Shown here piece by piece: positions 18,261-64,000 of a stretch of 64,000 bases of DNA. The stretch comes from Rhodovulum sp. MB263. Its GTDB lineage: Bacteria; Pseudomonadota; Alphaproteobacteria; Rhodobacterales; Rhodobacteraceae. How positions within the stretch are numbered: the first letter of the stretch is position 1; every line of letters starts with the position of its first letter. The stretch covers positions 1,984,001-2,048,000 of the forward strand of contig NZ_CP020384.1 of NCBI RefSeq assembly GCF_002073975.1. The letters run 5' to 3'. Made by a program: the position numbers and the translations under genes. Below the pieces are notes generated by a model that searched no databases, was not told where the DNA came from, and saw nothing but the letters and a program-made list of their open reading frames with translations.

Positions 18261-18451
18261 GGTGGGTAAATCGGCTGTTTCGTTCGCTCTACGCTCGCTG
18301 CAATCCACACCTTATGGTTGAGCGCACAAAAAGGCGGCACTTAGAGAGACGTTTTCTTGTTCTCCCTCCGTTCACGCCCTATCCTGTTGTCAAGTTGTGG
18401 CGAAAACGCTACAGGTTGCCCCCTCCCCTAAATATTCTGTCCCGAACAGCG

Positions 18452-54927: not shown

Positions 54928-56271
54928 ATGACAGAGACACTTCATATCGTCGGCGGCGGCATGGCCGGGGCCGAGGCCGCCTGGCAGGCCGCCCGGGCGG
55001 GGATCGACGTGGTGATCCACGAGATGCGCCCGAAGACCGGCACCTTCGCGCATAAATCCGGCGATCTCGCCGAAATGGTCTGCTCGAACTCGTTCCGCTC
55101 GGACGACGACGAACAGAATGCCGTGGGGCTTCTTCATTGGGAGATGCGCGCGGCGGGCAGCCTGATCATGGACATGGCCGACACCCACCGCCTGCCTGCG
55201 GGCGGCGCGCTGGCCGTCGACCGCGAGGCCTTTTCGCAAGGCGTCACGACCCGGCTTATGGACCACCCGAAGATCCGGCGTGAAGATGCTGAAATCACGT
55301 CCCTTCCAGAGGACGGCCACTGGATCTTCGCGACCGGCCCGCTGACCTCGGACGCGCTGGGTCAGGCGATCCGCACCGAGACAGGCGCCGAGGCGCTGGC
55401 CTTTTTCGACGCCATCGCGCCCATCGTTCATTTCGACAGCATCGACCTCACGAAAGCCTGGTTCCAGTCGCGCTATGACAAGGGCGAGACCGAGGAAGAG
55501 CGCACCGCCTATCTGAACTGCCCGATGGACCGCGACCAGTACGAAGCCTTCATCGACGCCCTGCTGACGGCCGAGAAGACCGCATTTCACGAGGGTGAGA
55601 CGGCGGGCTATTTCGACGGCTGCCTGCCGATCGAGGTGATGGCCGAGCGCGGCCGCGAGACGCTGCGCCATGGTCCGATGAAGCCGGTGGGGCTGACCAA
55701 TCCGCATGCGCCCGACATCAAGGCCCATGCCATCGTCCAGCTGCGCCGCGACAATGCGCTGGGGACGCTCTACAATATCGTGGGCTTCCAGACCAAGATG
55801 AAGTACGGCGCGCAAACCGATGTTTTCCGGATGATTCCGGGGCTGGAGAATGCCCGTTTCGCGCGGCTGGGCGGCATTCACCGCAACACCTTCCTGAATT
55901 CGCCGACCCTGCTCGATGCCGAATTGCGGCTGAAATCGAAGCCCCATATCCGCTTTGCCGGACAGATCACCGGGGTCGAGGGCTATGTCGAATCCTCGGC
56001 GATGGGGCTTCTGGCCGGGCGGCTGGCCGCGGCGGCGATCCAGGGCCGCAGCCTGCCCGCGGTGCCTGCCACCACGGCGACGGGCGCGCTCGTGATCCAT
56101 ATCACCGGCGGCGCCGAGGCGAAGACCTTCCAGCCCATGAACGTCAATTTCGGGCTCTTCCCGCCGGTCGACGGGCTGAAGGGCGGACGGCGCGGACGGC
56201 GCGACCGCTACAAGGGCTATAGCGACCGTGCCAAAGCGGACTGGACCGCCTGGCTGGGCGCGGCGGGCTGA
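54928..56271 (+). CDS. trmFO: Methylenetetrahydrofolate-tRNA-(uracil-5-)-methyltransferase TrmFO
   Basis: Makes m5U54 in tRNA with folate and FAD, 447 residues. FAD-binding [10 protein letters not shown] (9-18), folate region [10 protein letters not shown] (about 50-59), and catalytic Cys-containing segment [29 protein letters not shown] (about 228-257) are present. The start at 54928 places the Rossmann motif right after MTETLHIV. TrmFO is used by Gram-positive bacteria and alphaproteobacteria in place of TrmA. Confidence 0.95.
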
Positions 56272-56335
56272 GCGCTTCACATTCGCGCCGCGCGCCCCAT
56301 ATAGGACGCGACCGCTCCCGATCCGCCGAGGCCCG

Positions 56336-56530
56336 ATGCTCTACGTTCTCGCCCTGTTCCTGCCGCCGCTCTCGATCCTGCTGATCGGGCGTTGGTTCGT
56401 CGCGCTGGTGACGCTGGTGATCTGGATCCCGGCGATCATCTTCTCGGGCGGGCTGACCCATCCGATGTTCATCATCCTGGCCTGGATCCTAATCTTTCAG
56501 CGCGGGGCAGACCGCCGGGCGGGGCTTTAG
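56336..56530 (+). CDS. Small two-helix membrane protein (Pmp3-like)
   Basis: A 64-residue protein with two long hydrophobic segments (about 3-20 and 24-54), containing FLPPLSILLIGRW near residue 8 and WIPAIIF near 30. This is close to the UPF0057/Pmp3 pattern (FLPP...WIPG..), but the second motif is changed. If it is Pmp3-like it may protect the membrane under salt stress. It starts 65 bases after trmFO. Confidence 0.65.
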   Translation: MLYVLALFLPPLSILLIGRWFVALVTLVIWIPAIIFSGGLTHPMFIILAWILIFQRGADRRAGL

Positions 56531-62484: not shown

Positions 62485-63300
62485 ATGAACCAGCAGACTG
62501 CCGTGACAGAGCCCGCCAAGAAAACCCTGCCCGATGCGCAGACCGTGACCGAGGTCCGCCACTATACCGACCGGTTGTTCTATTTTCGCACGTCGCGGCC
62601 GCAATCGCTGCGGTTCCGTTCGGGCGAGTTCGTGATGATCGGGCTGCCCGGCGATAACGGCAAGCCGATCATGCGCGCCTATTCGATCGCCTCGCCCTCC
62701 TGGGATGACGGGCTCGACTTCTATTCGATCAAGGTCCAGGACGGCCCGCTGACCTCGAAGCTGCAGCATATCCAGCCCGGCGACGAGATCATCCTGCGGC
62801 CCAAGCCCGTCGGCACGCTAGTCCTGGACGCGCTCCTGCCCGGCAAGCGGCTGTGGTTCCTCGCGACCGGCACCGGCATCGCCCCCTTCGCCAGCCTGAT
62901 GCGCGACCCCGATACCTATGAGCGGTATGACGAGGTCATCATGATGCATACCTGCCGCGAGGTGGCGGAACTGGAATTCGGGCGCCAGCTGGTCGAGAGC
63001 CTGCCCGAAGACCCGCTGATCGGGGAATTCGTCGGCAACAAGCTGAAATACTACCCCACGACCACCCGTGAGACCTCGAAATGGATGGGGCGGGTCACCG
63101 ACAACCTCGCCTCGGGCAAGGTCTTCGCCGATCTCGGCCTCGCGGGCACGCAGATGGATCCGGCCACCGACCGCGCCATGGTCTGCGGCTCGCTCGATTT
63201 CAACAAGGACGTGATGGCGATCATGGAAGGCTGGGGCCTCAATGAGGGCGCCAATTCCGAGCCTGCCGAATATGTGGTCGAGAAGGCCTTCGTCGGCTGA
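62485..63300 (+). CDS. fpr: Ferredoxin-NADP(+) reductase
   Basis: FAD enzyme that moves electrons between NADPH and ferredoxin or flavodoxin, 271 residues from the ATG at 62485. FAD-binding RAYSIASPSWDD (about 62-73), NADP-binding GTGIAPFASLMRD (about 128-140), and the C-terminal EYVVEKAFVG, of the bacterial subclass with a C-terminal extension that controls hydride transfer. A GTG at 62476 is an alternative start that would add three residues. Rhodobacter FPR takes part in oxidative stress and nitrogen fixation electron flow. Confidence 0.9.
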   Translation: MNQQTAVTEPAKKTLPDAQTVTEVRHYTDRLFYFRTSRPQSLRFRSGEFVMIGLPGDNGKPIMRAYSIASPSWDDGLDFYSIKVQDGPLTSKLQHIQPGDEIILRPKPVGTLVLDALLPGKRLWFLATGTGIAPFASLMRDPDTYERYDEVIMMHTCREVAELEFGRQLVESLPEDPLIGEFVGNKLKYYPTTTRETSKWMGRVTDNLASGKVFADLGLAGTQMDPATDRAMVCGSLDFNKDVMAIMEGWGLNEGANSEPAEYVVEKAFVG

Positions 63301-63395
63301 CATCCCGCCATCAGGCAGCTTCAGATGCGCCCTGTCCGGATCTCTCCCCGGGCGGGGCGTTTCTGTATCCGGGGCGACAGATCCGCGCAGCGAGA

Positions 63396-63433
63396 TAAAA
63401 AAACCGCCGCACTCCCGGGCAGGAGGCGGCGGT
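63396..63433 (-). terminator. Rho-independent terminator of the small SOS-type gene
   Basis: Minus strand: ACCGCCGC (63433-63426 region) pairs with GCGGCGGT (63410-63403), 15-base loop, followed by TTTTTT. It lies about 90 bases downstream of the 51-residue gene and also after fpr on the other strand. Confidence 0.8.
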
Positions 63434-63521
63434 CAGGAAGCGGTCCGGCGCACGGAAGAGGCAGACTTCGAAACGACCCGGGGACGGGTCCGGCACTGGA
63501 CAGCAGGCAGAGGGAACAGTC

Positions 63522-63677
63522 TCAGACGAGGCCCGGCAGATGCAGCCCCGCGATCAGCAGAACCATCAGTGCAGCAGCTCCCGCGGCGTCCTGCCAAAGC
63601 GTGGCGCGGCAGCGGTTCAGAACGGATCTCAGCTCGGTCAGCATGGGTTTGGGCTCCCGTTTGATCGGTGTTGCCAT
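63522..63677 (-). CDS. 51-residue membrane protein under a LexA-type box; candidate SOS cell-division inhibitor
   Basis: A short gene on the minus strand. The product starts with a basic, soluble segment (MATPIKREPKPMLTELRSVLNRCRATLWQD) and ends with one hydrophobic helix (residues about 31-50, Ala/Leu/Met/Val/Ile rich), so it should be a single-pass inner-membrane protein. A GTTC-N7-GTTC box lies 31-45 bases upstream of the ATG, and a terminator follows, so it is a complete unit. It lies after recG, a DNA repair gene. By analogy with Caulobacter SidA (29 residues, SOS-induced, blocks division) it may stop division after DNA damage. The binding site is weak. The box and coding unit are seen; the role is inferred. 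Confidence 0.65.
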   Translation of the reverse strand: MATPIKREPKPMLTELRSVLNRCRATLWQDAAGAAALMVLLIAGLHLPGLV

Positions 63678-63707
63678 TTTGTTCTCATTTTCAGGGGTGC
63701 CTGTAAA

Positions 63708-63722
63708 GAACTTTTTAGGAAC
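63708..63722 (-). promoter_or_regulatory. LexA (SOS) box, GTTC-N7-GTTC
   Basis: Minus strand reads GTTC, CTAAAAA, GTTC, the exact alphaproteobacterial LexA consensus described for Rhodobacter and Caulobacter. It lies between recG and the 51-residue gene, 31 bases from the latter's start codon. Confidence 0.8.
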
Positions 63723-63750
63723 ATTTTGATTTGCCTTCCGAATCAGCTCG

Positions 63751-64000
63751 TTAACCGACCTTGATAAGACGAATCGCCTTGTCGCGCTCCATCAGCCAGA
63801 GCAGCACGCGCACCGCCTGCCCGCGCGGCCCGGCAAGTTCCGGATCCTCGGCCAGAAGCCTGCGCGCATCGCTTTGCGCGACCGCCATCAGCCCCGCCTG
63901 CCGTTCCAGATCGGCGATGCGAAAGCGCGGCAGGCCCGATTGCGCCGTGCCGATCAGATCGCCCGCGCCACGCATCGCCAGGTCTTCCTCGGCGATCCGG
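63751..64000 (-). CDS. recG: ATP-dependent DNA helicase RecG (C-terminal part)
   Basis: The C-terminal 83 residues of RecG, which remodels stalled replication forks and branched DNA. The visible part reads RIAEEDLAMRGAGDLIGTAQSGLPRFRIADLERQ at its start, the motif that identifies RecG (the RGxGxxxGxxQSG motif VI region), and ends MERDKAIRLIKVG. The start of the gene lies outside the window. Stop at 63751; the downstream SOS-type gene starts 74 bases later. Confidence 0.92.
   Translation of the reverse strand, partial: RIAEEDLAMRGAGDLIGTAQSGLPRFRIADLERQAGLMAVAQSDARRLLAEDPELAGPRGQAVRVLLWLMERDKAIRLIKVG

What the first reader, a model, noticed from the sequence alone, without database searches (positions are those of the whole stretch)
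63522..63722. SOS-box-controlled 51-residue membrane protein next to recG, possible SidA-like division inhibitor
A perfect GTTC-N7-GTTC box lies 31 bases before a gene for a single-pass membrane peptide, followed by a good terminator. Alphaproteobacteria lack SulA; Caulobacter uses tiny membrane proteins (SidA, 29 residues) for SOS arrest. This gene fits the same plan in a Rhodobacteraceae-like genome, in a repair-gene context.
Basis: partly seen in the sequence, partly recalled or inferred. Interest (0 to 1): 0.85.

Follow-up and report, generated by a model that had tools for sequence, protein, structure and literature searches.

The report
Hidden SOS membrane microprotein beside recG
Nearly every sampled genus of a large bacterial family (Rhodobacteraceae) carries, usually next to a DNA-repair gene, an unnamed gene for a tiny membrane protein with a conserved DNA-damage switch, a good candidate for the brake that stops these bacteria dividing while their DNA is repaired.

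Summary
The ORF (63522-63677, minus strand), perfect LexA box (63708-63722), recG 3' end and strong terminator are there. The true start is most likely Met12 (63644): 40 residues, box 63 nt upstream, because 118 of 118 homologous loci have an ATG there. A lone box proves little (117 in the genome); conservation decides. Of 118 loci, one per genus, 113 keep a perfect box and 113 keep recG next door. A second LexA-like site usually lies 38 bp further on. In four loci without recG upstream, box and gene stay together. By profile or position, 139 of 149 sampled Rhodobacteraceae genera carry it; 0 of 28 recG loci of other Alphaproteobacteria do (two with short flanks). The protein is under purifying selection, has one hydrophobic helix with a D-x-x-G core, and matches no Pfam or NCBIfam family. 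Best reading: a LexA-controlled checkpoint protein that, like Caulobacter SidA, blocks septum synthesis. LexA control is strongly inferred; the division target is untested, and homology to SidA was neither shown nor directly tested.

The parts
63522..63644 (-). CDS of the 40-aa single-pass membrane protein (start = Met12 of the 51-aa ORF; stop 63522-63524)
   Evidence: ATG at this position in 118 of 118 homologous loci, length 40 aa in 98 of 118; pN<pS in 1267 of 1275 pairs
63645..63677 (-). 11-codon upstream extension of the 51-aa ORF, probably not translated
   Evidence: No SD; overlaps the second LexA-like element; in L001-L004 it begins ATG, ATG, GTG, GTA
63654..63658 (-). Shine-Dalgarno-like GGGAG
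   Evidence: Sequence; SD-like motif in 111 of 118 homologous loci
63708..63722 (-). LexA box 1, GTTCCTAAAAAGTTC
   Evidence: perfect box upstream of the gene in 113 of 118 loci
63702..63707 (-). inferred -35 element TTTACA abutting box 1
   Evidence: TTTACA in 69 and TTTACT in 17 of 113 anchored loci; a sigma-70 consensus scan lists no promoter here
63679..63684 (-). inferred -10 slot GAACAA, 17 bp after the -35; first half of LexA-like site 2
   Evidence: GAACAA in 101 of 113 anchored loci; it agrees with TATAAT at only 2 of 6 bases, so the promoter role is inference from position
63670..63684 (-). LexA-like site 2, GAACAAAATGGCAAC (reversed box with one mismatch)
   Evidence: GAAC-N7-[GC]AAC in 101 of 118 loci; 38 bp from box 1 in 91 of 98; perfect GAAC-N7-GAAC in several diverged relatives
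63394..63434 (-). intrinsic terminator
   Evidence: -25.8 kcal/mol, z -4.85, then a U run
63751..64000 (-). 3' end of recG (runs off the window)

Best explanation
The gene is a LexA-repressed SOS gene. In undamaged cells LexA sits on box 1 next to the -35 and on a weaker reversed site over the -10 slot, and shuts the promoter (inferred from anatomy and conservation). DNA damage removes LexA, and a short mRNA ending at a strong terminator makes a 40-residue protein. The protein enters the inner membrane with its mostly positive N-terminus inside and a tail of a few residues outside (inferred). Its conserved helix positions (D19, G22, L26, L30, P37) dock on a polytopic membrane partner. The most likely partner is FtsW or its FtsI/FtsN complex, where binding holds septal peptidoglycan synthesis inactive so that cells filament until repair ends (inferred by analogy with SidA; not shown).
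For: Protein real: 16 of 16 genus genomes, 127 of 149 genera by profile at E<=0.01, 349 of 390 genomes of the order sample at E<=0.001; mean dN/dS 0.25, dN<dS in 63 of 63 genus pairs with finite dS (66 pairs in all). LexA control: box in 113 of 118 loci; box plus small TM ORF also in 19 of 26 and 15 of 16 recG loci of genomes with weak or no profile hit; box kept in four loci with no recG in the 2.4-3 kb held upstream; LexA in 143 of 149 genera, and a perfect box at 30 of 30 lexA loci examined, the best-scoring 30; own recA, uvrA and lexA carry such boxes. Membrane: net charge zero after residue 20 in 111 of 118; conservation along the helix is periodic at 100 degrees (106 of 20,000 shuffles as strong); D-x-x-G present in 117 of 118, which suggests a specific protein partner. 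Division: no SulA in 16 of 16; small TM proteins do this job in other SOS systems (passages of PMC4211646; PMC13396833); a Caulobacter lexA mutant filaments because of sidA (passage of PMC12700426).
Against: No expression, phenotype or interaction data. No homologue of known function. Outside the family the profile finds nothing convincing (best E 0.0076 in a 290-aa frame). LexA-controlled small membrane proteins can have other roles. The YneA TM helix alone binds FtsW but does not inhibit (passage of PMC13396833), and this protein has no domain beyond its helix. The inferred -10 is a poor consensus match, and no sigma-70-like site was listed. Six of 18 profile-negative genera with a RecG match lack box and gene there. 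G084, rated 100% complete, has the gene and box but no LexA hit.
Confidence: 0.6

Rival explanations
1. SOS-induced regulator of some other inner-membrane protein (for example a kinase such as CckA, a membrane protease, a transporter or a respiratory complex), acting by helix-helix contact but not on the divisome.
For: The periodic conservation and the D-x-x-G core predict a protein partner but do not name it. A LexA site at cckA of R. capsulatus is recalled and mentioned in a passage of PMC6473078.
Against: The single-TM SOS proteins discussed in PMC4211646 and PMC13396833 (passages) act on septum synthesis. The only conserved neighbour seen is recG.
Confidence: 0.22
2. TisB-type peptide that depolarises the membrane and favours persistence after DNA damage.
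For: LexA-type control, tiny size, one TM helix; a two-site operator would fit a toxic product.
Against: In the window protein the TM stretch is not amphipathic (hydrophobic moment 0.01-0.05 for windows starting at residues 19-23) and has no net charge. A periodic conserved pattern and near-universal presence at one locus do not look like a type I toxin. No Rfam match in 63300-63800.
Confidence: 0.12
3. Lysis or particle-release (holin-like) helper for gene transfer agents or prophages.
For: A link of LexA with gene transfer agent control in this family is recalled; not tested here.
Against: No convincing homologue in 50,697 phage records (best E 3), none in viral contigs by a close-match scan; usually next to recG.
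Confidence: 0.04
4. Chance ORF and chance box.
For: The genome has 117 perfect boxes.
Against: Conservation of box, gene, spacing and codons across the family.
Confidence: 0.01

Closest known systems
SidA of Caulobacter crescentus (29 aa)
   Same: SOS-controlled single-pass inner-membrane microprotein in an alphaproteobacterium with a GTTC-N7-GTTC LexA motif (passages of PMC4211646, PMC12700426)
   Different: Homology not shown; the present family is 31-47 aa, usually directly downstream of recG, with a two-site operator; target unknown
DidA of Caulobacter (71 aa)
   Same: small single-TM protein, DNA-damage context
   Different: DidA is SOS-independent (DriD) and binds FtsN (PMC4211646, passages)
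YneA (B. subtilis), SosA (S. aureus), ChiZ (M. tuberculosis)
   Same: SOS-induced membrane inhibitors of late division; YneA binds FtsW TM7 by its TM helix, the others are so modelled with low confidence (PMC13396833, passages)
   Different: YneA and ChiZ have a LysM domain outside the membrane; the present protein has only a few residues there
TisB (E. coli)
   Same: LexA-controlled tiny membrane protein (recalled)
   Different: TisB is an amphipathic type I toxin with antisense control (recalled); the present helix is not amphipathic

Membership tests
LexA (SOS) regulon of Alphaproteobacteria | GTTC-N7-GTTC operator in the promoter region, conserved | tested here: met
LexA (SOS) regulon of Alphaproteobacteria | LexA in the genome, with such boxes at its own gene | tested here: met
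   Own lexA over cut-off with a box at its start; perfect boxes at 30 of 30 lexA loci examined, of 143 found
LexA (SOS) regulon of Alphaproteobacteria | Induction by DNA damage, dependent on RecA and LexA | not testable with these tools
   No expression data
SidA | Sequence homology to Caulobacter SidA | tested here: inconclusive
SidA | SOS-induced single-TM microprotein | tested here: inconclusive
   Microprotein and operator present; induction itself not tested
SidA | Blocks division through FtsW/FtsI/FtsN | not testable with these tools
   Needs experiments
SulA | PF03846 domain | tested here: not met
   The protein matches no Pfam family; 0 of 16 genus genomes match PF03846, and of 14 control genomes it rings in E. 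coli alone
TisB-type type I toxin | amphipathic membrane helix | tested here: not met
   Window protein: hydrophobic moment 0.01-0.05 in windows starting at residues 19-23
TisB-type type I toxin | antisense RNA antitoxin | tested here: inconclusive
   No Rfam match in 63300-63800; a new antisense RNA would not be seen
YneA/ChiZ (TM + LysM) | LysM domain | tested here: not met
   Of 49 members scanned, one matches anything in Pfam at E<=0.1 (DUF6234, E 0.051); no room for a domain

The most novel reading that the evidence does not exclude
A previously undescribed, family-wide SOS checkpoint of the Rhodobacteraceae. It is a minimal transmembrane peptide whose working core is an acidic residue and a glycine about one helical turn apart (D-x-x-G, in some species in a protein of only 31 residues). 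It is held by an unusual operator that covers both the -35 and the -10, acts as the clade's missing SulA equivalent by direct helix docking on FtsW, and arose independently of SidA.
Probability: 0.45. Interest if true: 0.75.

Novelty: new member of a known kind. Interest (0 to 1): 0.62.

Why it matters
The passages seen here name no SOS division inhibitor for Rhodobacteraceae, and this genus shows no SulA. A gene without a named family that carries a near-universal SOS operator in this clade is a direct, easily tested candidate. The deep natural variation (31-47 aa around a D-x-x-G core) would also be a compact natural data set on how a bare transmembrane helix might silence septal cell-wall synthesis. 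No model in Pfam, NCBIfam or PHROGs covers it, so annotation pipelines may well leave it out or unnamed.

Tried and rejected
Lone-box significance: rejected as sufficient evidence, since 6 other perfect boxes lie in the window (4 inside mechanical ORFs of 200 aa or more) and 117 in the genome.

A weight matrix from 41 lexA-promoter boxes did not place this box among the 12 best sites of the window. The lexA boxes have their own spacer preference, so I do not take this matrix as a general LexA matrix; the result is against a simple score-based argument and is told as it stands.

Promoter consensus: one search lists no sigma-70-like site in 62500-64000; the -35/-10 reading rests on conservation and spacing alone.

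The 51-aa start was set aside; against this, 51 of 118 homologous loci do have some in-frame upstream start codon within 25 codons.

Mobile or phage origin: no convincing phage homologue (3 records, best E 3), no viral contig by close match, one plasmid record, a 1.58 Mb Pseudorhodobacter turbinis replicon (E 4e-3).

Structure: AlphaFold gives a single helix 2-39 (pLDDT 88.5, pTM 0.47), no PDB fold match at E<=10 and no PDB sequence match at E<=1. This adds little.

Profile hits outside the family (33 genomes, E 0.0076 to 0.1) were judged noise by score; four of them lie in frames under 90 aa and were not examined further.

RNA families: no Rfam match.

Literature: full-text searches. Searches found no paper; the rows listed by the others show no title or abstract start that describes this gene. 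Searches listed only 25 of 36 and 15 of 379 papers. Passages only were read of PMC4211646, PMC6473078, PMC11580390, PMC13396833 and PMC12700426; the other listed papers were not read. The R. capsulatus LexA paper (recalled, 10.1128/JB.00839-15) is not held and could list the box.

Full report
WHAT IS THERE. On the minus strand, 28 bp after the recG stop (63751-63753), lies a perfect GTTC-N7-GTTC box (63708-63722), followed by a small gene (ORF 63522-63677) and a strong intrinsic terminator (63402-63434 plus a U run; -25.8 kcal/mol, 0 of 200 shuffles as stable). The upstream neighbour is RecG by NCBIfam (851 bits, cut-off 785). The genome belongs to Rhodovulum: two same-genus genomes of the unnamed set share contig lengths and positions with records titled Rhodovulum kholense and R. 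visakhapatnamense.

START CODON. Homologues mostly align from about residue 6-12 of the 51-aa ORF on. In 118 of 118 loci (one per genus) an ATG sits at the Met12 position, and 111 of 118 have an SD-like motif within 18 nt. The upstream ATG has no SD and lies inside the second LexA-like element, about where transcription should begin if the promoter reading is right. The protein is therefore most likely MLTELRSVLNRCRATLWQDAAGAAALMVLLIAGLHLPGLV, 40 aa.

IT IS A GENE. It is found in 16 of 16 genomes of the genus. With a 49-sequence profile it is found in 127 of 149 Rhodobacteraceae genera (one genome each, E<=0.01) and in 349 of 390 genomes, 135 of 139 genera, of the order sample (E<=0.001). Of 66 genus pairs, 63 have a finite dS and all 63 have dN<dS (mean dN/dS 0.25); pN<pS holds in 1267 of 1275 pairs over 51 loci.

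THE OPERATOR IS CONSERVED WITH IT. Of 118 loci, 113 have a perfect direct box upstream and 113 have recG directly upstream on the same strand. The five without a perfect direct box are L296, L298, L302, L305 and L307; L305 keeps a perfect reversed box, and L296 and L307 keep the one-mismatch reversed site. Three further genera (L072, L073, L080) have box and recG too. A second element, GAAC-N7-[GC]AAC, is present in 101 of 118 (CAAC in 93, GAAC in 9), 38 bp from box 1 in 91 of the 98 loci with both. Between them lies a -35-like TTTACA touching box 1, then 17 bp, then GAACAA (101 of 113 anchored loci) on what would be the -10 slot. Against this, GAACAA agrees with TATAAT at only 2 of 6 bases and the consensus scan lists no promoter here. 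In diverged relatives the second element is often a perfect reversed box, which supports reading it as a LexA site. An extra GTTC half-site 6 bp before box 1 is present in 91 of 113, but not in this genome. The full box/-35/-10 arrangement is matched by 99 of 118 small-gene promoters and by none of 20 fetched stretches of this genome around other boxes or its lexA locus; a looser box-then-GAAC pattern occurs in 109 of 118, in two of those 21 stretches, and in 6 of 30 lexA loci. Of the five loci without recG in the flank held, four (L234/L050, L290/L310, L228/L311, L274/L312) have no recG in the 2.4-3 kb upstream and still keep box and gene; the fifth (L247) begins too near a contig end to tell. 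The box therefore belongs to the small gene, not to recG.

GENOMES WITHOUT A PROFILE HIT. Of the 22 such genera, 18 gave a RecG match, and 12 of those 18 still have an SOS box (either orientation) plus a 36-43 aa single-TM ORF right after recG. Six do not (L157, L161, L162, L163, L164, L169, the last a marginal RecG match), and four had no RecG match. The six genera with weak profile hits (L144, L145, L146, L151, L153, L156) all have box and ORF. The total by profile or position is 139 of 149 genera. In the order sample 41 genomes had no profile hit, 20 of them were listed, and all 20 were looked at: 18 have box and ORF (15 of the 16, plus G038, G116 and G592), and G560 and G702 do not. In several species of genus g24 the protein is only 31 aa. 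The control of 28 recG loci from other alphaproteobacterial genomes gave 0 with box and ORF; two of the 28 have short downstream flanks (24 and 261 bp), and one has a lone box without an ORF. Random placements in box-rich Rhodobacteraceae loci gave 2 of 5,000.

LEXA CONTEXT. LexA is found in 143 of 149 genera; the 30 lexA loci examined, the best-scoring ones, all carry a perfect box near the start. In this genome boxes lie at the starts of genes that match RecA, UvrA, LexA and the PA0069 radical SAM family, and of two genes with weaker matches, a Y-family polymerase (ImuB by recall) and a photolyase. Results against: the matrix made from lexA boxes does not favour this box, and G084, rated 100% complete, and three incomplete genomes (G043, G048, G162) carry the small gene without a LexA hit, so co-occurrence is not strict.

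THE PROTEIN. Residues 1-18 have net charge 0 or more in 107 of 118, and residues 21-end have net charge zero in 111 of 118, so N-in topology with a short outer tail is inferred. Among the 98 forms of exactly 40 aa, D19 and G22 are invariant, residue 25 is A or S in 97, L34 is kept in 97 and P37 in 91. Conservation along residues 19-38 is strongest at a helical angle of 100 degrees (10-degree steps; 106 of 20,000 shuffles as strong), with D19, G22, L26, L30, 33 and P37 on one side, while the conserved positions 25, 34 and 36 lie at its edges. D-x-x-G is present in 117 of 118, 14 of 19 and 15 of 15 proteins of the three sets. The helix of the window protein is not amphipathic. This points to a specific helix-helix contact and away from a TisB-like pore.

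MECHANISM. Shown by sequence: gene, operator, synteny, conservation, charge and hydrophobicity pattern. Inferred from knowledge of SOS systems: LexA repression and damage induction. Inferred by analogy, not shown: inhibition of septal synthesis via FtsW/I/N. Background: SidA (29 aa) and DidA target FtsW/I/N in Caulobacter (passages of PMC4211646); in a Caulobacter lexA mutant filamentation is due to sidA (passage of PMC12700426); YneA binds FtsW TM7 by its TM helix, and AlphaFold 3 models that their authors call not of high confidence place SidA, SosA and ChiZ there too (passages of PMC13396833). The same paper says that the YneA TM helix alone binds but does not block division, so a tail-less helix like this one would have to act differently from YneA and more like SidA.

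KNOWN OR NEW. No Pfam or NCBIfam family (in one search one of 49 members matched DUF6234 at E 0.051), no PHROG beyond single-member hits at E 0.041 and 0.092, no PDB match. The paper searches named under Tried and rejected listed nothing on this gene by title or abstract start; subscription journals are mostly missing from that library. I file it as a new protein family of a known kind (SOS-controlled membrane microprotein, probable division inhibitor).

On rereading the calls I mended the length range (31-47 aa), the wording on charge, the LexA-less genomes, the control with short flanks and the order-sample count, and added the promoter scan.

Noticed in passing
G000:C1:595234-595270 (L181): Three overlapping GTTC-N7-GTTC boxes in 11-bp phase, between a short ORF that looks like groES and one that looks like an inorganic pyrophosphatase (both recalled, not scanned); an unusual operator.
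   Followed up: no
L174 (G000:C1:1198176-1198190): A perfect GTTC-N7-GTTC lies inside a gene that looks like ftsW (identity recalled from sequence, not scanned); probably chance.
   Followed up: no
window 18359-18373: A perfect box in a stretch without a convincing gene start nearby; function unclear.
   Followed up: partly
window 56345-56359: A perfect box inside a 100-aa ORF (56228-56530) that looks like a UPF0057/PMP3-type membrane protein, between genes resembling trmFO and gluQRS (all recalled).
   Followed up: partly
L050 (6.1 kb): Here the small gene and its box are not next to recG but near genes resembling a NifU-like scaffold, gluQRS and trmFO (recalled from sequence).
   Followed up: partly
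L010, L040, L051; L153, L155: The second operator is a perfect reversed LexA box in these, whereas most of the family keeps a fixed one-mismatch version (CAAC), as if a weakened site were selected.
   Followed up: partly
L313, L317, L318, L320, L324, L325 (genus g24): The protein is cut down to 31 residues, almost only the transmembrane helix, with the D-x-x-G core kept.
   Followed up: partly
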